A program made the translations under genes and the position numbers. This document shows positions 5,179 through 33,488 of a DNA stretch of 33,488 nucleotides, in pieces. Position 1 is the first letter of the stretch, and each line of letters begins with the position of its first letter. The DNA comes from Methylophilus sp. 14 (GTDB lineage: Bacteria; Pseudomonadota; Gammaproteobacteria; Burkholderiales; Methylophilaceae), in NCBI RefSeq assembly GCF_015354345.1, contig NZ_JADKYS010000010.1:1-33488 (forward strand), read 5' to 3'. A model generated the notes under the pieces. The model did not search any database, had not been told where the DNA came from, and saw only the letters and a list, made by a program, of their open reading frames with translations.

Positions 5179-6984
5179 TTACTGAGCAACAGACTGGAAG
5201 CGAATGACTTCAACACGGCGGTTGGCATCATTACCACTTACAGGGTCATTTTCAGCAATCGGCTGTGAGAAACCATAGCCTTTTACGACCAGACGCTGGG
5301 CATCCATGCCTTTTTTGACCAGGTAGTCAGCAACCGCTTTTGCACGCTTCTCTGACAAGACCAGGTTGTACTTCTCTTTTGAGGTATTACGCTTGTCGGT
5401 ATGACCAGCGATTTCAACCTTGTCATTGCCCCACTCTTTAACAACGTCGTATACGATATCCAAATCTGCATATGACTCTGGCAAGATGATGGCGCTATTT
5501 GCCTGGAACAAGATACGCGGCGTGAATTTCATCGTCGCTTTTTCTTGTGTTTTTGGCTTGAAGGCTTCGCCTTCCCAAGGTTTAGCGTTAGCTAACAATG
5601 CAGCTTTGTCAGGCACTACTTGTGTAGGCGCAACGGCTTTACATACATTCTCGCGATCCATGTACTCTTCACGTGGATACTCACCCACGTCAGCACGCGT
5701 CACACCCAGCTTGCTCAGCAACAAACCCTGACCAGCGTATGTTCTTGCGTAAGAAGTGCTAAGATCCATTTCAGCATTGGTAAAATTACGACGGGACTGG
5801 AAGTATTCGTTTTCAGTATCCAGTAAGTCGAGCAAAGTACGTTGGCCAATATCATATTGTTTACGATAGGCTAAACGCGCATTTTCGATAGAATCCTGAT
5901 GTTGCTTGCGATAAGCAACTTGCTCAGTTAATTGCTTGATGTTGTTGTAAGCAATCGCCACCAGCTGACGCGTATCGATACACGCTTTGTCACGCAAGTC
6001 ATGTGAGCGATTTAAGGTTTCTACCGCAGAATCCAGGTTTGATTTATCAGTGAAACCATTAAAGATGTTCCAGCTTGCTGTAACCTCTAAAGTATCTGCA
6101 GCCAATGTGCTGTTTTTGCTCGCATCATTCACATCGATTATTTTGCGGCCTTGCAAATCCAGTCTCGGCATAAATGGCGCTTTTTTTCCAGAAACAGATT
6201 TTTCAACCGCGATAATATTCTCAATAGCCGCCAGGATATTTGGGTTTTGCTTGTAAGCGGTATCCAATACCTGATCTGCGCTACCAGCCAAACCATCACC
6301 TGTCAGCATCACTTCATTGACATTATCAGGCGGCAACTCACCTACCAGACGTTGAAAACGGGCAGACACATCATATAAGTTAGTGGTTTCTGTCAGCAGG
6401 TTGGCTTCAGCTAAAGCCAAACGACCAGTCGCCTGCTCCAAGTCAACCTTTTTGCCTACGCCTGCATCCACGCGAGATTTGATCTTGTCAAAAACCTGCT
6501 TGTGCACGACAAAGTTGTCTTGTGCATAAGACACCAGACGGCGATAGCGCAGCAAATCAAAATACGCAGTTGCCGTATCCAGTGCAACACCTTGCATTTG
6601 GCCTTGCAATTCATAGAAGCGTGATTTCGCAACATGATCAAGACGGCCAACTTCGGAAGGCGTCGCCAAACCATCAAAAATCATTTGACGCAAAGTCAAG
6701 GTGGATTGCTGGTTGGGTGTATAAGTGTTGTTGACGTTTGGCGTCAAACGCTCTTGATTACGGAACGTTTGATCAACTGTCAAGTTTGGCAGGTATCGGC
6801 CTTTGGCAGCAGACTCATCAAACTCTGCAGCTTTATAAGCATGGAAGCTGGCTTGAACCTCCGGGTTTTCGGAGACAGCCTTTTCGATAATTTTCTCTAG
6901 CGTCTCAGGACTGGCAGCCCAACTGATAGACGAGAAAGAAAATACACCCATTAATAGTGCCGAGGCGATTTTTTTTAGTTTCAT
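5179..6984 (-). CDS. lapE-like: TolC-family outer membrane efflux channel fused to OmpA-like peptidoglycan-binding domain (LapE-type)
   Basis: This 601-residue protein is predicted to be the outer membrane pore of the type I secretion system for the adjacent adhesin. Residues 1-23 are a signal peptide ending SWA. Residues from about 27 to 440 are a TolC-type outer membrane efflux protein (TLEKIIEKAVSENPEVQA at the start, RKQYDIGQRTLLDLLDTENEYFQSR near the end). A linker of about 45 residues follows. Residues 486-601 are an OmpA C-terminal domain with IAGHTD and LSEKRAKAVADYL, the region that carries the Asp and Arg used to bind meso-DAP of peptidoglycan. In the Pseudomonas system LapE has no such domain, and in some other Lap-type clusters the OmpA domain is a separate gene, so the fusion is notable. 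It is the last gene of the lapB-lapC-regulator-lapE run, 38 bp after the regulator. Confidence 0.94.
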   Translation of the reverse strand: MKLKKIASALLMGVFSFSSISWAASPETLEKIIEKAVSENPEVQASFHAYKAAEFDESAAKGRYLPNLTVDQTFRNQERLTPNVNNTYTPNQQSTLTLRQMIFDGLATPSEVGRLDHVAKSRFYELQGQMQGVALDTATAYFDLLRYRRLVSYAQDNFVVHKQVFDKIKSRVDAGVGKKVDLEQATGRLALAEANLLTETTNLYDVSARFQRLVGELPPDNVNEVMLTGDGLAGSADQVLDTAYKQNPNILAAIENIIAVEKSVSGKKAPFMPRLDLQGRKIIDVNDASKNSTLAADTLEVTASWNIFNGFTDKSNLDSAVETLNRSHDLRDKACIDTRQLVAIAYNNIKQLTEQVAYRKQHQDSIENARLAYRKQYDIGQRTLLDLLDTENEYFQSRRNFTNAEMDLSTSYARTYAGQGLLLSKLGVTRADVGEYPREEYMDRENVCKAVAPTQVVPDKAALLANAKPWEGEAFKPKTQEKATMKFTPRILFQANSAIILPESYADLDIVYDVVKEWGNDKVEIAGHTDKRNTSKEKYNLVLSEKRAKAVADYLVKKGMDAQRLVVKGYGFSQPIAENDPVSGNDANRRVEVIRFQSVAQ

Positions 6985-7022
6985 GTGCAGACTCTTAACA
7001 AGTTATAAAGATTCATCCAGAA

Positions 7023-7625
7023 TCAGTATAACCACTGAAGTGCCAGATGCAAACGATCCCGCACCTTTAAGGTATCAAACACAGAGGTCAAATGTGCTTT
7101 GACGGTGCGCTCAGAAATAGAAAGTGTGCGGGCAATCTCTTTATTGCTATTGCCTTTGGCTGCCTCTAATGCAACCTCGCGCTCGCGCTTGGTCAAGCCA
7201 TCTAAAATTTCTTCAGTAGCATCCGACTGCGGATTCACGCGTGTTGTCAGCGTAATCAAATGTTTGAGTACGTCGCGCCCTAACCAGACACCGCCTTGTG
7301 AAACCACGCTATACACCTCTTGCAACACATGCTGGTGTGCATAAGCATGCAAATAGCCCACAGCCCCCACTTCAAGCGCCTGCATCGCTTCTGCTTGATC
7401 TGGGTTATTAGATAACACAATCACCTTGGCCGACGGCAAGAGCGTTAATATCTGCTGCACATGTTTGCGCCACTGATTACCCTGCTCAATTTGTGCATGT
7501 ACCCAGATAATGGAAGCACCGGCGACATCTGCCGACACAACATCGGCAATCGTCGTTAATTGCGGGAAAGCCTTGAGCCAGGATTCTATGGACTGTTTTA
7601 AGGTAGTGATAAATATATGCTTCAT
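7023..7625 (-). CDS. LuxR/NarL-type regulator with degenerate receiver domain, in the secretion operon
   Basis: This 200-residue protein has the layout of a NarL-family response regulator. The C-terminal residues 143-198 are a clear LuxR helix-turn-helix (LTKREREVALEAAKGNSNKEIA, in part, then SERTVKAHL). The N-terminal half has the receiver-like pattern PSAKVIVLSNNPDQAEAMQALEVGAVGYL, but the strand that should end in the phospho-acceptor Asp reads IIWVHAQ (residues 39-45), and the Lys usual after GYL is missing. It is thus probably phosphorylation-independent (inference). The ATG is 5 bp after the lapC stop, so it is translated with the secretion genes. Likely targets are the adhesin or the secretion operon. 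I know of no equivalent gene at this place in the Pseudomonas lap locus. Confidence 0.88.
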   Translation of the reverse strand: MKHIFITTLKQSIESWLKAFPQLTTIADVVSADVAGASIIWVHAQIEQGNQWRKHVQQILTLLPSAKVIVLSNNPDQAEAMQALEVGAVGYLHAYAHQHVLQEVYSVVSQGGVWLGRDVLKHLITLTTRVNPQSDATEEILDGLTKREREVALEAAKGNSNKEIARTLSISERTVKAHLTSVFDTLKVRDRLHLALQWLY

Positions 7626-7630
7626 AGTAA

Positions 7631-9043
7631 TTAGCGCTCGGTTAGTGCGTAAGATTTAGCTTTTAACACTGGTTTTAATAAGTAGGACAGCACTGTTTTT
7701 TTACCGGTCAGAATATCGACCTGTGCCACCATGCCGGGAATAATCGGCAAGTGGTCGCCCAGATTATTCTTGTCTGTTCTTACCTTAACGACATAATATG
7801 CATTACCTTTATCGTCTATGGTGGAATCTGCTGCAATATCTTCTACCGCGCCATCCAAACTGCCATAAATCGTGTAGTCATAAGCCGTCAACTTAATCAC
7901 CGCAGGCTGCTGCGGGCGGATAAACGCAATATCCTTGGTTTGCACTTTGGCTTCAATCACCAGCGCATCATCAGAAGGCACCACCTCCATGACTTCCTTG
8001 CCGGGCTGGATCACGCCACCTACGGTGTTGTAATACAGCTTGCTGACTTTACCGTTAACGGGGGACGTCAAGGTAGATTGCTTTACTTTATCTGACAGTG
8101 CGAGACTGGATTGCGTCAGGCTATTAATTTTGGCGGTGGTTTCGTTCAAGTCCGTACGAATTTTACTCAGGAACGACTGTTGTGCTTCCGACACTTTACG
8201 CCTAGCCTCAGAAATCGCTGCTGTCAAACGACCCATTTGTGCAGATGCCTGGTCAATATCCCCTTTCGCACGATTGGCATCACGTTCCAACCTTAAGATC
8301 TCGATCTCGGATACCGCGCCACTATTTAACAAAGGGCGATTGGCCGCCAGCTCTTTACTGGTGGAGTCATAAGTTTTAATCGCCACTTCTTTCTTAAACT
8401 GCACTTCAGACAGCTCGCGCTCGCGCTGTGACAACTGATCCCTGGCGATATTGATTTGTGAGTTGAGTTCATCCCTGGCGGCATTAAACAATTGCAATTC
8501 TTGTAAGTAAGTATCAGGCGTTTTTTGCTGTACTTCAGACGGCGGATTAAAACTGCCGCCATTGGCTAAGGCCTTCAGGCGCGCCTCTTTGGCCTTGAGG
8601 GATAAATACTGGCTTTCATTCTCTTTTAATGAAGAAATAGCCCGTGTTTCGTCAATCTTAATTAACGGTTGACCTCGTTTTACGGTATCCCCCAACTGCA
8701 CCATGATATCGACCACGATACCGCCATCCAAAGACTGCACCACCTGTATCTGGCGGGACGGAATCACACGCCCTTCGCCCCGAGTGACTTCATCCACCTT
8801 GGCGACACTTGCCCAGACGAGTAGCACCAGCAAAATCGCCAAAATACCGTACATAATCAACTTGGCATGCAACATGGTGTCTTCTATCATCACATCATGC
8901 GCTTGCTCGGACCAGGTGCGTGATTCAGCGGTCTCGGTTTTGATGACCTTGTCTACCAGAGCATGCACTGGCTTGCCGAGGCGCACCCAGATACTGTCCG
9001 GCTTGGTGACTTCACCTAATTGATCGAATATTTTTTTTGCCAT
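7631..9043 (-). CDS. lapC: HlyD/LapC-type membrane fusion protein of type I secretion system
   Basis: This 470-residue periplasmic adaptor connects the inner membrane ABC transporter to the TolC-type channel. A cytoplasmic N-terminus of about 60 residues precedes one membrane helix (about 62-80, IMYGILAILLVLLVWASV). The typical HlyD segment TRGEGRVIPSRQIQVVQSLDGG and a lipoyl-like half motif VQLGDTVKRGQPLIKID follow. Long coiled-coil helices rich in Glu, Gln and Ala occupy about 130-320. The second lipoyl half (LTSPVNGKVSKLYYNTVGGVIQPG) and the beta-barrel end (YYVVKVRTD, IIPGMVAQVDILTGKKTVLSYLLKPV) complete the family architecture. It begins 4 bp after the lapB stop and is clearly in the same operon. 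The length is normal for LapC/AprE-like adaptors. Confidence 0.95.
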   Translation of the reverse strand: MAKKIFDQLGEVTKPDSIWVRLGKPVHALVDKVIKTETAESRTWSEQAHDVMIEDTMLHAKLIMYGILAILLVLLVWASVAKVDEVTRGEGRVIPSRQIQVVQSLDGGIVVDIMVQLGDTVKRGQPLIKIDETRAISSLKENESQYLSLKAKEARLKALANGGSFNPPSEVQQKTPDTYLQELQLFNAARDELNSQINIARDQLSQRERELSEVQFKKEVAIKTYDSTSKELAANRPLLNSGAVSEIEILRLERDANRAKGDIDQASAQMGRLTAAISEARRKVSEAQQSFLSKIRTDLNETTAKINSLTQSSLALSDKVKQSTLTSPVNGKVSKLYYNTVGGVIQPGKEVMEVVPSDDALVIEAKVQTKDIAFIRPQQPAVIKLTAYDYTIYGSLDGAVEDIAADSTIDDKGNAYYVVKVRTDKNNLGDHLPIIPGMVAQVDILTGKKTVLSYLLKPVLKAKSYALTER

Positions 9044-9047
9044 ATTG

Positions 9048-11192
9048 TTATCTCGCCTTACCTACTTTACCGGCGCGCAGCGCAGCAGTGACGTCCTCTT
9101 TATTACCATCTGCAACCACCTGACCGCCATCAATCACAATCAGGCGTTCTGCCAGTTCCAGCATCGCGTTACGGTGACTGATCACAATCATAGTTTTATC
9201 AACTGCGGCTTGGGCGATGTTACGTTTAACGGTTTCCTCACCGGAGTGATCCATAGCACTGGTCGGTTCATCCAGCAATACAATTTGTGGCTGCGTCACA
9301 AACGCCCGCGCAATGCCCACGCCCTGGCGCTGGCCGCCAGACAAAGTATCTCCGCGCTCGCCCACTTCGAGGTCAAAGCCTTTGGGGTGCGCATTCACAA
9401 ACTCTGCAATACCGCCCACTTGCGCCGCCTGTAACACGGAGTGATCATCGGCATGCGGATGACGCAAGGTAATATTTTCACGCAATGAGCCATAAAACAA
9501 ATGGTTATCCTGCTGGACATAACCAATACTGCGGCGCAACTCAGCCGGATCAATCTGCCGCGCATCAATGCCATCAATCAGGATCGCGCCTTCGGTTGGT
9601 TGATACAGGCCAAGAATCAGTTTATTAATGGTTGTTTTACCCGAGCCCATACGGCCAATCAGGCCAACGTGCTCACCAGGGCGAATCCTGAAAGAGACTC
9701 GGTTCAAAGCCAACTCATCCGAGCCAGGATACTTAAAAGAAACATTTTTAAATTCGATCTCACCCTTGAATGCCGGGCGAGACAGAAAATTAACGCCTTT
9801 ATTACGCTCTACCGGTTTACCCATCACTTCATCTAACGATTTCAGAGAAGTCGCTGCGGTGTGATATTGCGTAAACAGACCGGCGATTTGCGAAATAGGT
9901 GCCAGGCCACGGCTGGTTAATTGCGAGCAGGCAATCAATCCCCCCATGGTTAAATCCCCATTCGAGATTAAATACACACCTAAAATCACAATCGCAACAC
10001 TAATAATTTGCTGCAAGGCATAGGTACCATTGGTAATAGAAGAAGACAGTAGTTTGAGCTTGCTGCCAACTTCAGACAAAAACAGTGCACTTTTCTCCCA
10101 TTTGCCCTGCATCTGGCCTTCGACGCCCATGGACTTCACCGTTTCCAGGCCTACCAGACTTTCAATCAGCGTGGCATTGCGCTGGGCGCTGGCGCGGTAC
10201 ATGGTTTCTGACAGATCATGCATTTTGGTCTGTACGCTGAGCGAGTAAATCAACACAATCGCGCCACCAATCAATGCTGGCAACACCATATAAGGGTTAA
10301 TCCAGGCAATGACAATCAGGAAAATAATGCCGAATGGCAAGTCAATGAGCGTCACGACCGTGGCCGAGGTAATAAAATCACGCACGCTTTCAAACGATCG
10401 CAGATTGGAAGCAAAAGAGCCGACAGAGTTAGGCTTGGCTTCATAACGGGTGCCAAGCACTTTTTCCATGATTTGCGCACTGAGTTTCACATCAATACGT
10501 GCGCTGGCCCAGTCCAGGAAATAGGCTCGCATGGAGCGCAACAATAAATCGCCCAGCACAATCAGCGCCACACCTATGCCTAATACCCACAATGTTTCTA
10601 CCGCCTTGTTTGGCACCACACGGTCATACACGTTCATGGTAAACAGCGGCATGGCCAAGGCAAAAATATTGATCAGCAAGGCTGCAACCATCACATCACG
10701 GTAAATGCCCTTGTTTTCGGCCAAGGTTCCCCAAAACCAGTGCCTGACTTTGACGCGCCCCACTTCTGGGGTACGTGCATCAAACATAAAGTTCTGTTTG
10801 GTGATCAAGGCATAGCCAGTATATTGCGCCACCAGATCAGCCAGACTCATGGTCACGGCATCTGGCGACAAATCTGGGAATACCACCTGGGCAAAATGCT
10901 GGCTGTCATCTAGTTTGATCAGTTGGCAGGCGCGGTGATTATTCAGCAGCAAAGTCACATCTGCCTGAGGTTGCAGCAATGTTGCAACCGCCCCCTGCTT
11001 CACCGTCACTTCCAGCCGCAAACGTTCAGCTGAGCGTTTAAACAATTCAGGATTAAGCTTGCCCCCTTCCAGCGGTAAGCCAGAAGTTAAAGCATCGCGG
11101 GTTGTTGCCAGTCGATTATGGCGACAGATATAAAGAAGACACTCGAGCAGAGCGTCTTTTGCGGTCTTATTAAAGTATGGCGTCGTTTCCAT
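9048..11192 (-). CDS. lapB: Type I secretion ABC transporter, LapB type, with C39-like N-terminal domain
   Basis: This 714-residue inner membrane exporter energises secretion of the neighbouring adhesin. Residues 1-130 form a C39-peptidase-like domain without the catalytic Cys context, as in HlyB/LapB transporters, where it binds substrate rather than cutting it. Residues about 160-440 carry the six-helix ABC transporter membrane domain. The ATPase domain has Walker A GRMGSGKTT (513-521), Q-loop near 560, signature LSGGQ (617-621), Walker B IVLLDEPTS (from 637) and the switch His in ISHR (673). The 137-bp gap to lapD upstream probably holds the operon promoter; TTGATG and TAGAAT occur there but are spaced only 15 bp, so I do not call it. 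It starts the four-gene run lapB-lapC-regulator-lapE. Confidence 0.96.
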   Translation of the reverse strand: METTPYFNKTAKDALLECLLYICRHNRLATTRDALTSGLPLEGGKLNPELFKRSAERLRLEVTVKQGAVATLLQPQADVTLLLNNHRACQLIKLDDSQHFAQVVFPDLSPDAVTMSLADLVAQYTGYALITKQNFMFDARTPEVGRVKVRHWFWGTLAENKGIYRDVMVAALLINIFALAMPLFTMNVYDRVVPNKAVETLWVLGIGVALIVLGDLLLRSMRAYFLDWASARIDVKLSAQIMEKVLGTRYEAKPNSVGSFASNLRSFESVRDFITSATVVTLIDLPFGIIFLIVIAWINPYMVLPALIGGAIVLIYSLSVQTKMHDLSETMYRASAQRNATLIESLVGLETVKSMGVEGQMQGKWEKSALFLSEVGSKLKLLSSSITNGTYALQQIISVAIVILGVYLISNGDLTMGGLIACSQLTSRGLAPISQIAGLFTQYHTAATSLKSLDEVMGKPVERNKGVNFLSRPAFKGEIEFKNVSFKYPGSDELALNRVSFRIRPGEHVGLIGRMGSGKTTINKLILGLYQPTEGAILIDGIDARQIDPAELRRSIGYVQQDNHLFYGSLRENITLRHPHADDHSVLQAAQVGGIAEFVNAHPKGFDLEVGERGDTLSGGQRQGVGIARAFVTQPQIVLLDEPTSAMDHSGEETVKRNIAQAAVDKTMIVISHRNAMLELAERLIVIDGGQVVADGNKEDVTAALRAGKVGKAR

Positions 11193-11329
11193 GGCAGATG
11201 ACTTATTATTATCCTTATCCGAGCAAAATCAGGGACTGACTGTCCGATTATTTATTCTATGGCGTGCCAAGCACCATCAAAACGATGAGTATATGGCATA
11301 ACACCCCGAAATTACAAAAATTGACATTT

Positions 11330-13258
11330 CTACAGCGCACCAAATTGTAAATTTTCTTGTACGAACGGCCCGGTTACCGCTTCAATACCGATCGCATTCA
11401 AGCTATCCAGCTCTTGCTGGTCTTGCACGCCTTCGGCAATCGGCACAATCCCCATGGTGCGTACCATCATGCACAAACCGCGCATGAGGGACTGTTGTTG
11501 CGGACGCAGGTGAATGTCACGGATCAGTGACGCATCAAACTTGATGTAATCCAGGCCCAGTTCATGCAAGTCACCCAATTGCGCCAGGCGAGTGGAAACA
11601 TGCTCCAGGCCGACCATGCAACCCAGGGATTTCACCAGGTGCACAAACTCTTTAAATTTAACAAAATCACTGAATGCTGCTTCTTCCGCCACTTCAAAGC
11701 TCAACCGGGCTGGCGTTGCCACTGTCAGGATTAATGCTTGCAACTTATCTTTATACTCATCACTGCGCATGGCTGCCGCAGACACGTTCACACTGAGGCT
11801 GGCATTGTTCTTCGTCAGCATATCAACGGCATACTCCAACGCTAGGCCGTCCAGTGTTTTAATCATATCGAGCTGGCTGGCCCAATCAATAAACGCACCT
11901 GCAGCCAGCCATTGATCACCCTCATCAATATGCAAACGCAATGGACACTCATAGTGATACAGCTGCTGGTCGCGCTGCATCACCGGGTAGCAGGCCAGCT
12001 TGATCTGCTTCTGTTCAATCGCCTGCAAGAACTGCTCTTTCCATTGATTGAGGTAGTTTTTCCTTGAAGTGACGATGCTATTGGCATTCATCACCCGCAT
12101 AGGAATCGCCGCCTGGTCTTCAGCCAGGTCGAGAATAAACTGCATCACACGATGAATATCGACAAAGTCATCGCCTTTTTTAGTTTTGGTATGTGTAACC
12201 ACAAACTGGAACTGCAATAACTGCTGCGCCGCGTTCAGTTTTTCCAGCACCAGTTTGAGCTCGGTCGTGACGGCAAAATCATCCAGCGGCTGGCGGCTGA
12301 AAATACCGAACACACCGCCTGCCAGGCGACCACACACCACGTCCTGGTAATGCTCCATCTGCTGTTGCACGGCATCACCAACCTTTTTAATCAACTGGTT
12401 GGTCACGCTGTAGCCCATTTGCTTATCGATGTCAGGCAAATTACGCAGTTGCACCAAAATCAGCACACCTTCGACAAAGCCATCATTTTTGAGGGCAACC
12501 GAAGCCGTATTGGTGAAATGTGACTGATTCATCAAACCGGTCACTTCATCGTAGTTGATTTGCTGGTTAAAAGTATTCAGGCGCTCAGACTCTGCCGTCA
12601 CCATGGATTTAACGCGGTCAGACAGCGTATTCATGGTGCGCACCAGTTTCTGGAACTCTTCTGTGGCAGGTTCTGCAATGGTGATGTACTTGCGCTCACC
12701 CAAGGCTTCGGCTTGTGCAATCACGTCATCCAATGGTTTCAGGATACGCTTCAGCCAGAAGCCGGACACGACATAACTGAGCAAGGCGACAATTAATGTC
12801 CACAACACGGCGTGGCGCGAAGTCTCCCACAACTGGTCATAAGCCAGCGATGGCTCGCTTTCAAGCACCAGTGTGCCATATTGCTGCCAGCCAGACTGGA
12901 TGCTGGCTACGCCGGGCTGGATGCTGACAGAGAATACCGACTGAAACCAAGCCGGTGCCACAGAATGCGGGTTGCGGTTCACCCGCTCTATCATGAGCTT
13001 GTTATCAGGAGAAATAATGGCAATACGGCGATAATGCCCCATATCAAACTGGGCGCTGATAATCAGCTCAACCGTCACGTTGTCTTTCTGGATATTCGAA
13101 AGCGTGATGGCCAGCCCATTGGCGTTGTCGTTATTTTTCTTCTGTAGCTGTTCCGCCATGTAACGATGATCGTCATAAACGCTGAGGAACAAGCATCCCG
13201 CCGCCACCATTAAAATAATGACAGAAATCGCAATTCTGATCTGTTTTACTAAAGACAT
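11330..13258 (-). CDS. lapD: LapD-type c-di-GMP receptor with degenerate GGDEF and EAL domains
   Basis: This 642-residue inner membrane protein is predicted to sense cytoplasmic c-di-GMP and control the LapG protease across the membrane. Helices at about 9-27 and 150-168 flank a periplasmic LapD/MoxY-type domain. It contains a Trp at residue 124 in SGWQQYG, matching the loop Trp that contacts LapG in Pseudomonas LapD. A HAMP segment (about 170-222) is followed by a GGDEF domain whose active site reads AGGVF (313-317), and an EAL domain whose signature is ECP (437-439) and whose DDFG loop is LEHVST. Both enzymes should be inactive, as known for LapD, leaving a c-di-GMP-binding EAL fold. It lies between lapG and lapB, all on one strand. 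Confidence 0.94.
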   Translation of the reverse strand: MSLVKQIRIAISVIILMVAAGCLFLSVYDDHRYMAEQLQKKNNDNANGLAITLSNIQKDNVTVELIISAQFDMGHYRRIAIISPDNKLMIERVNRNPHSVAPAWFQSVFSVSIQPGVASIQSGWQQYGTLVLESEPSLAYDQLWETSRHAVLWTLIVALLSYVVSGFWLKRILKPLDDVIAQAEALGERKYITIAEPATEEFQKLVRTMNTLSDRVKSMVTAESERLNTFNQQINYDEVTGLMNQSHFTNTASVALKNDGFVEGVLILVQLRNLPDIDKQMGYSVTNQLIKKVGDAVQQQMEHYQDVVCGRLAGGVFGIFSRQPLDDFAVTTELKLVLEKLNAAQQLLQFQFVVTHTKTKKGDDFVDIHRVMQFILDLAEDQAAIPMRVMNANSIVTSRKNYLNQWKEQFLQAIEQKQIKLACYPVMQRDQQLYHYECPLRLHIDEGDQWLAAGAFIDWASQLDMIKTLDGLALEYAVDMLTKNNASLSVNVSAAAMRSDEYKDKLQALILTVATPARLSFEVAEEAAFSDFVKFKEFVHLVKSLGCMVGLEHVSTRLAQLGDLHELGLDYIKFDASLIRDIHLRPQQQSLMRGLCMMVRTMGIVPIAEGVQDQQELDSLNAIGIEAVTGPFVQENLQFGAL

Positions 13259-13376
13259 CTGAAAGCCCTCTTACTTTCCTGGGGGAGATTCGGCCATAAC
13301 CCGCCGAGCGTGTAGGCTTCGCGCACTAGCCTAGCATTCTGCCTCCATAATAACCACATTTCTAACAGGTTTTTAA

Positions 13377-14051
13377 TCATTCCACTCCATCCTGTCGCAT
13401 ACGCGTCAATACATCTCGCCATTTAGAGATGTTGGAAGGTGAGCCAGCACGCATATTCGGGTTATTGGCAACGAATAACCCTTTATCATTAAAACTGAAC
13501 ACTGGCGCCAAATCGCCACGCCGGGAGGCCGGCAGCAATTCGAAATTCAAGTTATCAAGCACCAGTGGATCACTATTCGGTGTTGCATAATAGGTTAAGA
13601 CCATATGCGGCCTAATGGCTCCGCTGGGCATGCGCGCCCGGACATAGGTCAGGCGTAACTTGTCCTGTGACACACCCAGCTTCTTCAGCAGGGTATATTT
13701 GGCAATACTAAAGTCCTCACAGTCGCCCGCCCCTTTACCAAAGGTTTCCAGCGGACTGGCCCAGTAATCTTCGATGCCCCACAGCGTAATGTCATCCACA
13801 AACAATACATGCTGGTTGGTAAAATCGTTGACCATGCTCACCTTGGTCATTTCACTGGCACCCGCAATCTGCGCAAACAATTCATTCATGCGCATCACAT
13901 TCTGGTAGGCTTCTTCGCCATAGCGCTGCCTGATTTTTTCCAGCATCGCCAGCACATAGTCATCCGCCAGCGTCTGCGTCCATAGCAGACTCAGCGCCAG
14001 GCATAAGCCTGTCAGCAGTCGAGCAATCAATGGCGATACGTGGCGTCTCAT
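13377..14051 (-). CDS. lapG: LapG-type periplasmic cysteine protease (bacterial transglutaminase-like, BTLCP)
   Basis: This 224-residue protein has an N-terminal signal or anchor segment (residues 10-29, ending TLA) followed by a transglutaminase-like fold. The catalytic triad is visible: Cys111 in GAGDCEDFS, His149 in RPHMVLTYY and Asp166 in VLDNLN. WGIEDYWASPLE before the Cys is also typical of the family. LapG cuts the retention module of LapA-type adhesins at a di-alanine site when LapD does not hold it, releasing the adhesin from the cell. The adhesin at the far end of this locus carries such a site. LapD starts 118 bp downstream. Assignment is firm from motifs and context. Confidence 0.95.
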   Translation of the reverse strand: MRRHVSPLIARLLTGLCLALSLLWTQTLADDYVLAMLEKIRQRYGEEAYQNVMRMNELFAQIAGASEMTKVSMVNDFTNQHVLFVDDITLWGIEDYWASPLETFGKGAGDCEDFSIAKYTLLKKLGVSQDKLRLTYVRARMPSGAIRPHMVLTYYATPNSDPLVLDNLNFELLPASRRGDLAPVFSFNDKGLFVANNPNMRAGSPSNISKWRDVLTRMRQDGVE

Positions 14052-27260: not shown

Positions 27261-27725
27261 ATGAAATTAGACCGCTTCGACAAAGCCATACTCAGCATTC
27301 TGCAAACCGACGGACACATCAGCAACCAGGAACTCGCTGACCGTATCGGCCTCTCCCCCGCGCCATGCCTGAGAAGAGTCAAAGCATTAGAACAAGCAGG
27401 GCTGATACTTGGCTATCAGGCACTGGTCGACGCCAAAAAGCTGGGGCTTAGCCTGATGGCACTGATTGGTATCTCCATGGACCAACACACACCAGAGAGA
27501 TTTGCCAACTTTGAAAGCAGCATCACGCAGATTCCAGAAGTGCTGGAATGCCTGCTGATCACTGGCCAACAATCGGACTACTTGCTTAAAGTGGTTGTAA
27601 AGGACATGGATGATTACCAGCACTTATTACTGCATAAAATCACCAAGATTGCGGGAGTTACGGGGGTTCATACCAGCTTTGTACTGAGAAATGTGGTGGC
27701 ACGGGCGAAAGTGCCAGTGGATTGA
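27261..27725 (+). CDS. Lrp/AsnC family transcriptional regulator
   Basis: This 154-residue protein has an N-terminal winged helix-turn-helix (LDRFDKAILSILQTDGHISNQELADRIGLSPAPCLRRVKALEQ, in part) and a C-terminal RAM/ligand-binding domain (about 65-145, with VLECLLITGQQSDYLLKVVVKDM). Proteins of this family form dimers to octamers and respond to amino acids. Its position, divergent from leuA over a shared AT-rich region with repeated sites, points to control of leucine metabolism (inference). The SPAPCLRRV recognition helix is typical of Lrp. No clear ribosome site precedes the ATG, but the start matches family length. Confidence 0.95.
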   Translation: MKLDRFDKAILSILQTDGHISNQELADRIGLSPAPCLRRVKALEQAGLILGYQALVDAKKLGLSLMALIGISMDQHTPERFANFESSITQIPEVLECLLITGQQSDYLLKVVVKDMDDYQHLLLHKITKIAGVTGVHTSFVLRNVVARAKVPVD

Positions 27726-27764
27726 GTTGTGAGCATAAAATAAAAATCTGCTCCTTGTTGTGAT

Positions 27765-28327
27765 GTTGCTTTTCGCCTATGGGCGAGTCACTTTCTGGTG
27801 CTTGTCCCCCAGAAAGTAACCAAAGAGGACGACACCCAGCCATCACGGCCTGCGGCTCCCTTGTGTTGCTCAACAAAGTGGGCGTCCATCGAAACTCGCC
27901 CTAGCGGCTTGCAAAGGAAGCAAGCCACCGCGGAACTCGAACAGACGATGGCCGACTACCCCCACTTCGTCTCCGCTACTCAGCGTGATAGGATGGGATT
28001 CTTCTCGCCAAACTTACATTGATGAGATTTGGACGGTTCAAAAACCAGATTCTTTGTCTTATAACCATCGACGGTTGCAGTCGCATGGTGTGCGGGGTCC
28101 CCATCTGACGCGCCGAGCAACGCAGGATTGGCGGGAGTTGTCGGCCATCGGCTGTCCGAATCCCGCAGCAGCTCACGTAGTTTGCGAGCTGCCAGGTTGA
28201 GTTTCGATGGACGCCCGGCAAGCCGAGTAGCACAGGAATCAAGCGGAAGCTGGGGTGCACTTTCTTTTGGTTACTTATTCTTTGGGCAAGCAAAGAAAAG
28301 TAACTCGCCGAAAAGGCGAAAAGCAAC
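27765..28327 (+). repeat. Large structured non-coding element, copy A (full length)
   Basis: The interval 27726-28461 has no credible gene and is mostly this element. The ends GTTGCTTTTCGCC (27765-27777) and GGCGAAAAGCAAC (28315-28327) are perfect inverted repeats. Inside, GGGCGTCCATCGAAACTC (27880-27897) pairs perfectly with 28199-28216, and 27939-27956 pairs with 28140-28157 at 16 of 18 positions. Each arm holds its own hairpin (GGCTTGC/GCAAGCC at 27906-27926 and GCAGCTC/GAGCTGC at 28168-28192). The central core 27972-28123 matches copy B in reverse orientation. The whole could fold as a long multi-branched stem. No transposase is encoded. Short frames inside are interrupted and I treat them as shadows. 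Confidence 0.8.
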
Positions 28328-28416
28328 CCTTCAACAAAGAACACCCTTCCCTCCTCGCCTTAGTCTAGCTCCACTTCGTAATGAGGAACCTAAATTAACC
28401 GGGAAACACAAAAAGC

Positions 28417-28443
28417 AAAAGGCCATGCAATGCATGGCCTTTT
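28417..28443 (-). terminator. Intrinsic terminator of the thioredoxin-like gene
   Basis: AAAAGGCCATGCA and TGCATGGCCTTTT form a 13-bp stem around a single A, starting 19 bp after the thioredoxin-like stop. Read on the minus strand it ends in a T-run (complement of the A-rich left flank, 28411-28420). Confidence 0.8.
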
Positions 28444-28461
28444 AAACACAACAATCAATAA

Positions 28462-28830
28462 TTATTGCTTAGCGTCTTCCGCTTTGTAATATTCACGCAC
28501 TGGCGTCATATCAAACTCACGTGCCCATTTGATAATCTCATCCAGCGCCGGAGCACCAATCTCACCGACTTGCGCATGAATCCCTGCACGCTCGCGAATC
28601 ACCAGCAATCCTGGAATTTGCTTTACTTCAAAGTACTCAGAAATTTCCGGGTCCGTTTCAGTATTCACCATACCAAACACAATGTCCGGATTTTTTGCTG
28701 CAGCAGCTTCAAAAGTGGGTGTAAACGCCACGCAAGGATCACACCACGGTGCCCAGAAATCAACCACCACGAACGCATTATTTTCGATGGTTTCTTTAAA
28801 ATTCGCTTTGGTCAGTGTTACAACCGCCAT
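28462..28830 (-). CDS. Thioredoxin-family protein
   Basis: This 122-residue cytoplasmic thioredoxin fold has the active site WCDPC (residues 29-33) in place of the canonical WCGPC, and a cis-proline loop QIPGLL (Pro73). VVVDFWAPWC before the site is standard for thioredoxins. The C-terminus extends about 12 residues beyond classical Trx (REYYKAEDAKQ). It is a likely disulfide reductase, perhaps a secondary thioredoxin. GGAG lies six bases before the ATG. It stands alone between two terminators, so it is probably monocistronic, next to structured element A. Confidence 0.93.
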   Translation of the reverse strand: MAVVTLTKANFKETIENNAFVVVDFWAPWCDPCVAFTPTFEAAAAKNPDIVFGMVNTETDPEISEYFEVKQIPGLLVIRERAGIHAQVGEIGAPALDEIIKWAREFDMTPVREYYKAEDAKQ

Positions 28831-28933
28831 ACTATCTCCAGTCCAAAAAATTGTTTTTATGGCATATATTTTAACAGACGATCGTTACTGCCAGCGAAAT
28901 TTTCACTGGTAGTTGACACGAGTGCTCTAAAAC

Positions 28934-28960
28934 AAAAAAGTCGGCAAAGCCGACTTTTTT
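28934..28960. terminator. Bidirectional intrinsic terminator after the PEP-CTERM gene
   Basis: AAAAAAGTCGGC, loop AAA, and GCCGACTTTTTT make a clean stem flanked by A and T tracts, 20 bp past the PEP-CTERM stop and about 100 bp upstream of the thioredoxin-like start. Confidence 0.88.
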
Positions 28961-28980
28961 ATCGTTCACATACACATGAA

Positions 28981-29514
28981 TTACGCAGTGGTTTTTCTTC
29001 TACGCACCAATACAATCGCACCTAAGCCAGCCATCAACAAACCGTAGGTTTCTGGTTCTGGCACAGCATTCACACGGAATGCATAGTTCAGATTGGTGAC
29101 ATTGTTGTCTCTGACAAAAGCAGAAGCAGCTGAGTGGATATCACCCAACACAAATGAATCTACTGGGCCGTAGTATGCACCGTTGTATTTGTTGTTGTAG
29201 TCTTGTGCAAATACAGCACCGCCGTAACCAATCACATCATACCAAGCCTGGAAGTCGATGTTTGCAGCAGACGCATCAATAGTACTGATGACGTAGTCTG
29301 ATGCAGAGCCACCAAACAACAGTGCAGCGGCTTCTTGCGCTGTATAGGCTAACGGGCCATTGGTAGCATCAAAGGCACTATCACTCCAGTATGGTGCATC
29401 ATCGTTATACACAGACCAGCTACCCACAAAGGTATAACTAGCGGCATTGGCAAAAGACATGCCTACAAACAAGGCTGCGCCGACCAGCGTTTTAGTAAAG
29501 CGCGAAATCAACAT
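28981..29514 (-). CDS. PEP-CTERM sorting domain protein
   Basis: This 177-residue exported protein has a signal peptide (residues 1-24, ending ANA). The mature part is Ala, Asp, Asn and Tyr rich. The C-terminal tripartite sorting signal is VPEPETYGLLMAGLGAIVLVRRRK in parts: the motif VPEP at 151-154, a membrane helix, then an Arg cluster. PEP-CTERM proteins are processed by exosortase EpsH and are associated with exopolysaccharide-producing Gram-negative bacteria. No exosortase gene is in the window. AGGAGAGA precedes the ATG. The specific function is unknown. Confidence 0.93.
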   Translation of the reverse strand: MLISRFTKTLVGAALFVGMSFANAASYTFVGSWSVYNDDAPYWSDSAFDATNGPLAYTAQEAAALLFGGSASDYVISTIDASAANIDFQAWYDVIGYGGAVFAQDYNNKYNGAYYGPVDSFVLGDIHSAASAFVRDNNVTNLNYAFRVNAVPEPETYGLLMAGLGAIVLVRRRKTTA

Positions 29515-29574
29515 ATTCTCTCTCCTCTAAGAATTAACCCGAATAAACAGGCATATTTTTAATAACAAATTTTA

Positions 29575-29604
29575 TTTATGGTCCATGCTAATTCATCGTG
29601 TCAA
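29575..29604 (-). promoter_or_regulatory. Probable promoter of the PEP-CTERM gene
   Basis: On the minus strand TTGACA (29604-29599, perfect) is followed after 18 bp by CATAAA (29580-29575, weak -10). The start site would be about 50 bp upstream of the ATG at 29514. The rest of 29605-29682 shows no other feature. Confidence 0.5.
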
Positions 29605-29682
29605 ATAACTCAACAACAATATGATTGATCAGCGGCTAATCTACCCAAACGGGCTAATCTGCGCATAGACAGAAATGCCACA

Positions 29683-30276
29683 TTACTGACCTTGCCATAC
29701 GCCATTAAAAAATAACTCCTCCAGTGGCTTGCGGCTACGGGCAGCCAGTTCGCGCTCTTTCACTTCTCCCGACAAACTGTCTACGGATGCCTGGTAGCCG
29801 ACGGTAACCATCGCCAGGATCTGGTAACGCTCAGGCACATTGAACGTCATCCTGGCTTTATCGGCATCGAATCCACCCATTTGGTGCGCCATCAGCCCCA
29901 GTGCCGTGGCTTGCAAACACAGGTTTTCAGTCGCGGCGCCGGTATCGTAGGCGGCCCACTTATTCGGTTTATCGTTATGCCCAAACAAAGTATCTGCGCA
30001 AATTAATAACAGCACCGGCGCGTTCACTGCCCAGCCTTGGTTGCCAGGCACCAGGCAATCAAACGCTGCCTGCCAGGCTTGCAGGTTATCGGCCTTGTTG
30101 CAAAAGACATAGCGCCAGGGCTGGTCGCCAAAACAGGATGGCGCCCAACGGGCAGCTTCAAGCAGGCTGACCACTTGTTCTTTGCTGACCGACTGGTCTG
30201 CATCATAAGCACGGCCGCTCCAGCGGTTGGCTAACAGTTCATGAATGGCTTGTTGCGTGATCGCAGGTTTTTGCAT
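29683..30276 (-). CDS. Nitroreductase family FMN oxidoreductase
   Basis: This 197-residue protein has the nitroreductase fold: an N-terminal RWSGRAYDADQSVSKEQVVSLLEAARWAPSCFGDQPWRYV with the FMN-contacting Arg-Ser-like start and SxxxxQPW segment, and a mid-protein AAYDTGAATENLCLQATALGLMAHQMGGFD typical of the family. It binds FMN and uses NAD(P)H to reduce quinones, nitro compounds or an unknown substrate. I chose the ATG at 30276 because GAGGA lies about seven bases upstream; an in-frame TTG at 30282 is less likely. Only 10 bp separate it from the mutS stop, and its ribosome site overlaps the end of mutS, so the two are co-transcribed. Confidence 0.94.
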   Translation of the reverse strand: MQKPAITQQAIHELLANRWSGRAYDADQSVSKEQVVSLLEAARWAPSCFGDQPWRYVFCNKADNLQAWQAAFDCLVPGNQGWAVNAPVLLLICADTLFGHNDKPNKWAAYDTGAATENLCLQATALGLMAHQMGGFDADKARMTFNVPERYQILAMVTVGYQASVDSLSGEVKERELAARSRKPLEELFFNGVWQGQ

Positions 30277-30286
30277 GGTCAAATCC

Positions 30287-32833
30287 TCACAATTGTTTTT
30301 TTAAAGAATACAGTAACTCTAACGCCTGCTTGGGCGTCAGGTCATCTGGTTGAATACGTTCTAACTCTGCGACCAGCGGGTGCAAAGGCGGGTCCTCTGG
30401 CACATGACTGACCGCAAACAAATCATTTTGCGGTGTAGCCGCAATGGTTTGGTTTTCCAGTTGCTGCAGTTTGCGCTTGGCCAGTTGCACTACAGATTTA
30501 GGAATACCGGCCAGCTGCGCCACCTGTATGCCGTAACTCATGGTCGCGGCGCCCTCTTCTACCTTATGCAAAAACACAATGCCCTGACCATGCTCCACCG
30601 CATCCAGGTGCACATTGGCGGCATGCTTGGCTTCATCGACAATTCTAGTCAACTCAAAGTAATGGGTCGCAAACAAGGTCAACGATTTGTTTTTTTCCAG
30701 TAACTGTTTAGCCACGGCCCAGGCCAGGCTCAAACCGTCAAAAGTGCTGGTGCCGCGGCCAATCTCATCCAATAACACCAGGCTATTGGCACTGGCATTG
30801 TTCAGGATATTGGCCGTTTCCGTCATCTCTACCATAAAGGTTGAGCGCCCACCTGCCAGGTCATCAGAAGCACCAATCCGGGTAAAGATGCGGTCTACCT
30901 CACCAATAACTGCACGTTGTGCGGGCACAAAGCTGCCACAATAGGCCAACAATACAATCAATGCTGTCTGCCGCATAAAGGTGGATTTACCACCCATGTT
31001 CGGGCCAGTAATCAGCAGCAATTGCCGATAGGCATTGAGCGTGACGTCATTCGCCACATAAGGCTGCGCAATGCTTTCCACCACTGGATGGCGGCCGTGC
31101 TGAATATCGAAGCCAATTTCGGCACGAAACTCAGGTTGTACGTAATTAAGTGCCCGCGCCCGCTCGGCAAAACAAGCCAACACATCCAGGCTGGCGACCG
31201 CCGTGGCGATGCGTTGCAACGTGGTGATGTGCGGCAATAGTGCATCCAGCACCTGCTCATAAAGCATTTTTTCGCGCGCCAAGGCACGCTCATTGGCACT
31301 CAGCACCTTATCTTCAAATGCTTTAAGTTCAGGCGTAATAAAGCGTTCAACGTTTTTTAGTGTTTGGCGGCGACGATATTCCGGTGGCGCACTTTCGGCT
31401 TGCAAGCGGCTGATTTCAATATAAAAACCATGCACACTGTTATATTCGACTTTGAGGTTGGCAATGCCAGTACGGGCTTTTTCTGCAGCTTCAAATTGCA
31501 ATAAGAAGTCACCATGATCGGTCTGAATCGCACGCAACTCATCCAGCTCGGCATCGTAACCAGCGGCAATCACGCCGCCTTCGCGCAACACCGCAGAAGG
31601 CTCCGCCTGAATCGCCTGCACCAACAATTGCAACGCATCAGAGGGTGCTTGCAATTCACCCAGCAACCCTTGCAATAAAGGCGACATCGCTCCTGGCAAG
31701 GCTGAGGTCAGCGCCGGCAATTGCAACAAACTATCACGCAGACCAGACAAATCACGCGGACGGGCCGTTTTCAGGGCGACCCGTGCCGTCATGCGCTCAA
31801 TATCGCCTATCGGATGCAGCGCCTGCTGCAAGGTACACTCCAGAAACTGCCCCAGCAACTCAGCCACTGCCAAATGACGCTGCTGGATGAGGTGCTGATT
31901 GCGCAAAGGATGATGCAACCAATGACGTAACAATCGCGCGCCCATGGCCGTCTGTGTTGAATTCAACAATGAATACAAGGTAGGCGTGGCTTCACCACGG
32001 ATGGTGGTATCAATTTCCAGGTTGCGGCGTGTTGCCGCGTCTAGTTGCAGGTAATGATGGCTCTGCTCTACACGTAAACCGGCAATATGCGGCAATGCCG
32101 TGCGCTGTGTATGTTTCACGTACTCTAGCAATGCCCCTGCTGCCGTCACTGCCGCAGGCATCTCTCCACAGCCAAAACCGCCCAGGTCATGCGTATTAAA
32201 TTGCTGCGTTAAACTACGGTTAGCGGTATCCAGGTCAAACTGCCATGGCGCCAAGCGTTTTTTGGCGCAACGTGACTGTTGCAACACCTCTGAACTATGG
32301 TCCTCCGCAATCACCAGCTCGGCAGGATGAATACGCTCCAGCTCTTGCGACAAATGCCCGGGCGCGATCTCACTTAACACAAACTCGCCTGAAGCCAGGT
32401 TGAGTCGCGCCAACCCAAGCACACCTTCGCCTTTGGCCACACACAGCAGCGTGTTATCGCGTGTCTCATCCAGCAGCGCCGCGTCCGTCAGGGTGCCAGG
32501 CGTGAGGATACGCGTCACCTCACGCGCTACTGGCCCTTTAGACGTTGCCGGATCACCCACCTGCTCGCAAATGGCCACTGCTTCGCCCATTTTTGCCAAC
32601 TTGGCCAGATACCCTTCGGCTGCGTGGTAAGGCAAACCCGCCATTTTAATCGGCTCGCCATTGCTGGCACCACGGCGGGTCAGCGTAATGCCCAGCAAAC
32701 GAGATGCTTTTTCGGCATCCTCAAAAAACAATTCATAAAAATCGCCCATGCGGTAAAACAGCAGCATATCGGGATACTGTGCTTTTAACGTCAGATATTG
32801 ACGCATCATCGGGGTGTGATTTTCGAAGGACAT
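30287..32833 (-). CDS. mutS: DNA mismatch repair protein MutS
   Basis: This 848-residue protein (E. coli MutS is 853) recognises mispairs and starts mismatch repair with MutL. The mismatch-binding motif is Phe-Tyr-Glu in GDFYELFF (32-34). Walker [10 protein letters not shown], then [17 protein letters not shown] and Walker [17 protein letters not shown], lie in the C-terminal ATPase domain, followed by FATHYFELT. Connector, core and clamp regions are all present and uninterrupted, so mismatch repair should be intact. Upstream, 32834-32975 shows no other gene and no clear promoter. Confidence 0.98.
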
Positions 32834-32975
32834 GCAGGGAAACTTTGATTTAGAGGTGTTGGAATAAATAGCCAGTGCATCTTACAACAAAAGCATGTTT
32901 TTTGCCGAGAGTGCTTTTAGAAAGAGGATGATGAAAGAAAGTCATTCTTCAAAGCTGTTTGTTGCATGTTGACAT

Positions 32976-33488
32976 TTCTTTCGCCTTTAGGCGAGTCACT
33001 TTTCTTTACTTTTTCGACGTGGCAGTATTTTGTGAGTGTTGCTTTCGCCTTTCCGACGACCATTCTTTCTTATGCTTGTCCATAAGAAAGAAGGCAAAGA
33101 ACAAGACACCCCAGCTTCCGCTTGTATCCTGCGTTGCTCGTCAAAATAAGCGGTCACGAAACTCAACCTAGTAGCTCACACAGAACGTGAGCTACTGCGG
33201 GATTCGAACAGTCGCTCCCTTCTTCCTTATTTTGACTGCGCTACTCGGCGCGGCAGATGGGGACCCCGAACACCATACGACTGCGACCATTCGCGAATTG
33301 AAGAAAAAGAATCTGGTTTTTTGACCGTCAACATTTATGCAATGTGAGTTTGGCGAGATAAATCCCATTCCATCACGCTGAGTAGCGGAAACAAAATAAG
33401 AGTAGAGGGAGCGACTGTCTGAGCTCCGCAACAAGCCACGAAGTGTGTGGCTTGTCAGGGCGAGTTTCGTGACCGGCTTATTTTGTTG
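32976..33488 (-). repeat. Large structured non-coding element, copy B (inverted, cut by window end)
   Basis: This is the same element as copy A in opposite orientation. The core 33239-33389 aligns with the reverse complement of 27972-28123 over its whole length. The outer end GTTGCTTTCGCC begins at 33038, and an extra partial copy of that end (TTTCGCCTTTAGGCGAGTCA) lies at about 32979-32998. The arms 33142-33164 and 33462-33485 pair apart from one bulged base, and 33206-33234 pairs with 33392-33421. Arm hairpins are GTAGCTCAC/GTGAGCTAC (33171-33195) and ACAAGCCAC/GTGGCTTGT (33431-33455). The window ends inside the element. No credible gene is present. Confidence 0.78.

What the first reader, a model, noticed from the sequence alone, without database searches (positions are those of the whole stretch)
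27765..33488. Two inverted copies of a cloverleaf-like element whose arms co-vary
Copies A (27765-28327) and B (about 33038 to past the window end) share a core of about 150 bp in opposite orientation. The flanking long arms differ between copies: A uses GGGCGTCCATCGAAAC, B uses AATAAGCGGTCACGAAAC. Yet in each copy the left arm still pairs with its own right arm almost perfectly, and each arm contains a hairpin whose stem sequence also changes with pairing kept. Divergence with preserved pairing suggests selection or arm-to-arm conversion for structure, such as a structured RNA, a cruciform, or the termini of a non-autonomous mobile element.
Basis: seen in the sequence. Interest (0 to 1): 0.78.

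Follow-up and report, generated by a model that had tools for sequence, protein, structure and literature searches.

The report
Shuffled nested DNA hairpins, fixed sites
The two copies belong to a family of about 550-base elements with nested hairpins that sit at the same intergenic places in different Methylophilus species, swap parts among copies while keeping their stems paired, and have relatives in other bacterial families.

Summary
A (27770-28326) and B (33042 to the contig end) are 2 of about 30 copies of a ~550 bp element in this Methylophilus genome: terminal hairpins, a ~120-nt nested hairpin unit, a core, an inverted second unit, terminal hairpins. Pairing runs within each unit; the left-arm/right-arm pairing of A and B is not general (22 of 123 copies). 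Stems of 123 copies differ yet stay Watson-Crick paired. In 41 units from 26 genomes of other families 93.6% of cells pair, covariation 0.527 against 0.101 shuffled. G.T is not favoured over A.C, so no RNA signature. The 30 loci fetched here all have an element or remnant at the orthologous site in species G007, and its 30 have one here, yet orthologous copies are barely more alike than others. Polarity follows the replichore in G007 (27 of 28) but not in G004 (10 of 15) or G021 (5 of 9). Best reading: ancient, now immobile DNA-hairpin mosaics homogenised by gene conversion, BIME/REPIN-like but failing that family's tests. No description was seen in the searched papers.

The parts
27770..28326 (+). 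Element copy A, full length
   Evidence: Family profile positions 1-555, 608 bits; blastn family of about 30 loci in the genome
27771..27822 (+). Left terminal hairpins of A (TTTCGCC..GGCGA, then CTTTCTGG..CCAGAAAG)
   Evidence: Inverted repeat 27787-27798/27809-27820; covarying columns 20-28/39-47 in 123 copies
27858..27984 (+). Hairpin unit 1 of A
   Evidence: Boundaries from the family alignment; used in alignment A1
27875..27882 (+). Unit 1 outer stem, left strand (AAAGTGGG)
   Evidence: Faces 27961-27967; columns 106-112/189-195, 4 of 7 pairs with two or more Watson-Crick types; not in the single-sequence best fold of A
27961..27967 (+). Unit 1 outer stem, right strand (CCCACTT)
   Evidence: See previous row
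27906..27926 (+). Unit 1 inner hairpin (GGCTTGC / GCAAGCC)
   Evidence: Columns 136-142/150-156, 6 of 7 pairs with two or more Watson-Crick types; in the best fold
27985..28108 (+). Core between the two units, partly hypervariable, gives the element its polarity
   Evidence: Alignment of 123 copies
28109..28234 (-). Hairpin unit 2 of A, inverted relative to unit 1
   Evidence: Boundaries from the family alignment; alignment A1
28259..28326 (+). Right terminal hairpins of A
   Evidence: Columns 499-502/524-527 covary
33042..33488 (-). Element copy B, cut by the contig end
   Evidence: Profile positions 102-552, 439 bits, minus strand (locus L028)
33130..33252 (+). Unit 2 of B (outer stem AAAATAAG / CTTATTTT)
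   Evidence: Sequence; folds with both stems, z -4.23 as DNA
33378..33488 (-). Unit 1 of B, incomplete
   Evidence: Sequence and profile match

Best explanation
An ancient family of non-coding DNA elements built from nested hairpins. Shown: ~550 bp anatomy (terminal hairpins, unit, core, inverted unit, terminal hairpins), about 30 copies, intergenic and more often than not between convergent genes, sites shared between species, modules reassorted among copies, stems kept Watson-Crick paired. Inferred: the copies descend from early insertions of a non-autonomous element whose mobility has stopped in Methylophilus. Copies are homogenised by gene conversion or homologous recombination at their short conserved blocks. 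A hairpin is exchanged as a unit, or corrected against its own other arm, so pairing survives while sequence changes. [quoted passage not shown]
For: Copy family; anatomy and one polarity. Covarying stems in 123 copies; 18 of 21 consensus pairs with both-side changes in 36 units; 41 units found by the model in 28 loci of 26 genomes of other families: 93.6% paired, covariation 0.527 against 0.101 shuffled and 0.049-0.087 slid. Module types assort almost freely between unit 1, unit 2 and ends (Cramer V 0.24-0.37, shuffled means 0.21-0.25), more linked within a unit (0.48, 0.45). Sites: 29 of 30 loci each way between this genome and G007 (26 of the 29 by both flanks, 3 by one); the two exceptions have a remnant at the site. 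All 15 fetched loci of G004 and all 11 tested of G021 share at least one flank with a site here. Orthologous copies 0.815 identical, other cross-species pairs 0.805, pairs within the genome 0.81. Polarity 27 of 28 in G007 (p 2e-7), 23 of 25 sampled copies in Methylophilus sp. 42, sign change at dnaA.
Against: No empty site, target duplication or transposase was found, so insertion itself was not shown. Polarity is weak in G004 (10 of 15) and G021 (5 of 9). Retention of all 30 sites is more than one expects of neutral DNA and favours a host function. A slight orthology signal exists: the ortholog is among the 3 most similar of 24 in 7 of 24 cases. Of the 300 top covarying column pairs 68 are complementary; the rest reflect module linkage. 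No association with Y1 transposases: 20 of 26 model-positive against 165 of 247 other genomes, p 0.38.
Confidence: 0.5

Rival explanations
1. A host-maintained chromosomal DNA site: the hairpins fold in single-stranded DNA and are bound by a conserved protein acting in replication, segregation or nucleoid folding.
For: 30 of 30 fetched sites kept between two species while sequences turn over; in G007 polarity switching at dnaA and mean distance to dnaA 0.33 of a replichore, KS p 0.0028; conserved unpaired blocks (AACTC, TCRRACAR, GYTRCTC) between variable stems; spread over other families.
Against: Polarity not kept in G004 or G021, and nearness to dnaA weaker there (p 0.053 and 0.34); model matches per genome range from 3 (G022) and 5 (G027) (lower bounds) to dozens of places; no binding protein identified.
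Confidence: 0.22
2. A structured RNA or 3'-UTR/terminator element: hairpins are transcribed at the ends of convergent genes and stabilise or terminate transcripts.
For: By a simple gene rule, convergent context for 17 of 28 full-length copies here and 15 of 28 in G007, 62 of 116 in all loci examined, divergent in 2; strong covariation.
Against: No G.U preference (33 G.T against 37 A.C; 5 against 17 and 9 against 12); no Rfam family; no promoter-like match inside A and 2 terminator-like hits in it (3 in the scanned stretch, shuffled mean 1.4).
Confidence: 0.15
3. A recently active miniature transposon with terminal inverted repeats.
For: Multi-copy, intergenic, TTTTCGCC/GGCGAAAA ends; terminal inverted repeat of 30 nt, 80%.
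Against: Sites shared between species; no polymorphic insertion seen. Autonomous partner not found: the longest frames between widely spaced units in L210, L214, L221 and L222 have no Pfam match; only these four loci were checked.
Confidence: 0.06

Closest known systems
REPIN/REP and BIME elements with RAYT (TnpA-REP) transposases
   Same: Multi-copy intergenic palindromic DNA, inverted doublets that fold as hairpins, compensatory changes in the stems (REPINs, passages of PMC3116915), mosaics of units (BIME, passages of PMC3733652).
   Different: ~550 bp with two ~120-nt units, not 20-40 bp REPs; no constant GTAG or CGTC head; no Y1-transposase association and none detected at E 0.001 in G007 and G009, which carry the copies; modules swap; sites shared between species.
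IS200/IS605 ends and derived palindrome-associated elements
   Same: Subterminal secondary structures and lagging-strand targeting (start of the abstract of PMC6006769, seen in the listing) resemble the hairpins and the polarity seen here.
   Different: No HUH transposase linked; much longer; each strand carries one unit in each orientation.
Integron attC sites (recalled, no call)
   Same: Imperfect folded hairpins with conserved unpaired bases and variable stems.
   Different: Units are inverted pairs in intergenic DNA; flanking motif differs by recall; not tested.

Membership tests
REP/REPIN/BIME (RAYT-dependent) | Short palindromes (20-40 bp) with GTAG or CGTC head | tested here: not met
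   Units are ~120 nt; flanking motif is GYTRCTC and varies (by reading the alignment)
REP/REPIN/BIME (RAYT-dependent) | Cognate RAYT/Y1 transposase in the genome | tested here: not met
   Not detected in G007 and G009, weak single hits in G000, G013, G004, two in G021; 20 of 26 model-positive against 165 of 247 negative genomes, p 0.38
REP/REPIN/BIME (RAYT-dependent) | Inverted doublets able to fold with compensatory changes | tested here: met
MITE | Terminal inverted repeats | tested here: met
   A: 27749-27778 / 28314-28343, 80%
MITE | Target-site duplication and polymorphic insertion sites | tested here: inconclusive
   No empty site found, but most loci were fetched because they hold an element; flanks of 25 copies and 20 loci of G132 were read by eye only, no duplication evident
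Structured RNA family (Rfam) | Match to a curated family | tested here: not met
   0 matches at gathering score; 3 sub-threshold unrelated matches
Structured RNA in general | G.U pairs favoured over A.C on the transcribed strand | tested here: not met
   few mismatches, limited power
Structured RNA in general | Expression | not testable with these tools
   No transcript data at hand

The most novel reading that the evidence does not exclude
A broad, undescribed class of host-kept DNA hairpin sites in Gammaproteobacteria (GTDB sense): folded units with conserved unpaired blocks that work in single-stranded DNA at replication forks, held at fixed positions and rewritten by concerted evolution.
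Probability: 0.15. Interest if true: 0.85.

Novelty: new variant of a known kind. Interest (0 to 1): 0.62.

Why it matters
Dispersed palindromic repeats in bacteria are usually read as short sequences spread by a transposase. Here long nested hairpins keep their positions between species, and one lies between the same two genes in another genus, while their sequence is reshuffled and their pairing kept. That separates inheritance of place from inheritance of sequence, gives a natural system for studying DNA hairpin maintenance and ectopic gene conversion, and would explain contig breaks seen at these copies. Because related units occur in other families, a general role or a general parasite becomes testable.

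Tried and rejected
tRNA-like cloverleaf: no tRNA; a resemblance of GTTCGAATCC to a T-arm was seen by eye and dropped. Known RNA family. Y1/RAYT partner: six genomes and a class sample; no link, and the RAYT loci L187-L190 hold no element. Autonomous version: longest frames between widely spaced units in four loci have no Pfam match; three more stretches (L223-L225) were fetched and not analysed. Polarity in another family: G142 has four two-unit copies, too few to judge. Plasmids and phages: matches covering 9-12% of A in 10 plasmid records, none in phages. Composition as cause of polarity: element GC skew is near zero (mean -0.010), strand difference in DNA folding energy is small (2.0 kcal/mol; bottom strand more stable in 17 of 25). 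Positions in G004 and G021 without an element were not examined, so losses there are unknown. One further column set with high covariation (33-36/61-64, z 17.7) was left out of the stem counts because it pairs across a hairpin loop. Papers: eight searches in an open-access library. Searches returned nothing; others listed 3, 1 and 1 papers, unrelated by title and abstract start; two listed 10 and 15 papers, among them REP, REPIN and BIME work. Passages were read in PMC3733652 and PMC3116915; six terms sought in PMC2267715 had no occurrence. No description of these elements was seen.
Full report
What is in the window. The window is contig C2 of a 3.0 Mb genome. Copy A (27770-28326) lies between open frames at 27261-27725 (+) and 28462-28830 (-), a convergent pair. 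Copy B (33042-33488, minus strand) starts 209 bases upstream of the long frame 30287-32833 (-) and is cut by the contig end.

Copies. Blastn with A finds about 30 loci in the genome; 25 of 525-600 bp were aligned. Pieces also lie at ends of contigs C3, C10, C11 and C12. Among 61 genomes (own included) 31 have a match: 20 of 22 of the genus and 11 of 39 others.

Anatomy. The core gives every full-length copy a polarity: terminal hairpins, arm, unit 1, core, inverted unit 2, arm, terminal hairpins. A unit is a nested hairpin: flanking motif GYTRCTC, outer stem of about 8 pairs, internal loop, AACTC block, inner stem of 7 or more pairs, TCRRACAR block, outer stem, second motif. The two flanking motifs also covary as pairs (9-123 and 11-121).

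Pairing. In 123 unique full-length copies six stems have maximum covariation 15.5-22.5 times the standard deviation over all column pairs (mutual information with average-product correction). Relatedness was not corrected for, stems were chosen at 85% complementarity or more, and 68 of the 300 top pairs overall are complementary, the rest reflecting module linkage. Over these six stems there are 4434 Watson-Crick cells, 33 G.T, 37 A.C and 26 other. In the 36 units of A1, 18 of 21 pairs show both-side changes. The set A2 is independent of A1 in origin: 41 matches in 28 loci of 26 genomes of other families. There 93.6% of 626 cells pair, 208 cells have both sides changed, and covariation is 0.527 against 0.101 shuffled and 0.049-0.087 slid. 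A2 was found and aligned by the model, which leans towards its structure. G.T against A.C is 5 to 17 in A1 and 9 to 12 in A2. An RNA should favour G.U on its own strand; this is not seen, with limited power. Folded alone as DNA, A's two units show the inner hairpin but not the outer stem (z -2.35, -0.82), B's unit shows both (z -4.23), so for the outer stem of A the case rests on covariation.

In A and B the left strand of unit 1 also matches the right strand of unit 2, because both units carry related types. Generally it does not: 22 of 123 copies at the 6 of 7 level and 3 of 123 over 17 bases, against 109 of 123 for pairing within unit 1. The whole element can still fold globally (A: -141.4 kcal/mol as DNA, mean of 20 shuffles -84.5).

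Reshuffling. Each module has a few recurring types. Combinations are nearly free between unit 1, unit 2 and ends (Cramer V 0.24-0.37, shuffled means 0.21-0.25, some above by three standard deviations or more) and more linked within a unit (0.48, 0.45); copies with types outside the six commonest were dropped per comparison, leaving 83 to 106 of 123. Copies at 24 orthologous sites are 0.815 identical, non-orthologous cross-species pairs 0.805, pairs within the genome 0.81; the ortholog is among the 3 most similar of 24 in 7 cases. Flanks of site L003 lie at two different loci in G004 (L272, L037) and in G021 (L271, L273), so breakpoints coincide with elements.

Sites. Between this genome and G007 (flanks 81-94% identical in most alignments) 29 of 30 fetched loci match each way; of the 29 here, 26 by both flanks and 3 (L006, L028, L030) by one. 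The leftovers were followed: L008 has an internally deleted remnant in G007, and the G007 locus L178 matches, by one flank, the element piece at the start of contig C3. All 15 fetched loci of G004 and all 11 tested of G021 share at least one flank with a site here; four further G021 loci were left out as second hits at the same places, and a few weak matches in both genomes were not fetched. Two other genera of the family have 3 and 5 model matches (lower bounds). Six of these eight were compared. One (L330) lies between the orthologs of the two genes that flank the element pieces at the end of contig C11 and the start of C10 here (the join is inferred, and 0.76 kb beside one piece was not examined). 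Three lie within a few kilobases of a site, two do not. The windows cover 408,364 bases, 13.5% of the genome.

Context and polarity. By a simple longest-frame rule, full-length copies lie between convergent genes in 17 of 28 cases here and 15 of 28 in G007; the rule is rough and scored A itself as codirectional because of a short frame. Polarity follows the replichore in G007, 27 of 28 (p 2e-7, terminus assumed opposite dnaA). Here 23 of 28 have element-oriented GC skew below zero. In Methylophilus sp. 42 it is 23 of 25 sampled copies. The sign changes at dnaA in G007 and G013. It is not kept in G004 (10 of 15) or G021 (5 of 9). Over 116 copies, many of them orthologous, 87 follow the rule. 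Because sites are inherited these are not independent insertions.

Spread. A covariance model of the unit matches 26 of 273 other genomes drawn from the class. In 13 of 28 fetched loci of those a second unit follows in inverted orientation, always plus before minus. G132 has 36 places at E 1e-27 or better, up to about 210 bp in most; in the 20 aligned, the outer arms also change in step, as read by eye.

Mechanism. I read these as old non-autonomous hairpin mosaics, immobile now, kept alike by gene conversion, with pairing preserved because hairpins are exchanged whole, corrected arm to arm, or selected as folded DNA. Which of the three holds is not decided. Retention of every fetched site between two species argues for some cost of loss, so a host function is the main rival.

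Novelty. Eight searches of an open-access library and passages of two papers showed no description of these elements. The closest kind is BIME/REPIN, whose size, head motif and transposase link are not met.

Noticed in passing
L355, L358, L363, L367, L369, L372, L390, L401, L414, L428 (IMG/VR contigs): The minimal loop motif TGTTTGAGCGNAGCGAGTT has exact matches in 80 listed viral-collection stretches; in those named here it sits, by eye, in the loop of long nested hairpins with differing stems, several with a tail like the element's end arm. The unit model finds nothing at E 0.1 in the 35 of 80 scanned, so the link rests on motif and visible pairing.
   Followed up: partly
L366, L380, L386, L392, L418 (IMG/VR contigs of about 9-10 kb): The same motif lies without an evident hairpin in small contigs. 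Another stretch of L366, away from the motif, resembles filamentous Vibrio phage VCY over 40% of the query.
   Followed up: partly
L435:2659-2899; L127:3326-3610; L130:3266-3496: Copies with the inside deleted and both ends kept: a decay form of the element.
   Followed up: partly
L011, L015, L017, L018, L021, L024, L435: Some copies carry a small extra hairpin module (around GGACGAAAGTCC / GGACTTTCGTCC) in a unit or arm.
   Followed up: no
window 684-3320 and 5179-14051: Repetitive frames at the left end, near frames that by eye look like a type I secretion system and a LapD/LapG-like pair: perhaps a giant adhesin operon (recalled names, not tested; frames).
   Followed up: no
L187-L190: Weak Y1-type transposase hits, one or two per genome in four of six Methylophilus genomes, without elements nearby.
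   Followed up: partly
L221:2191-3603; L222:1573-2358: Frames of 470 and 261 codons lie between two widely spaced units in two other families and have no Pfam match.
   Followed up: partly
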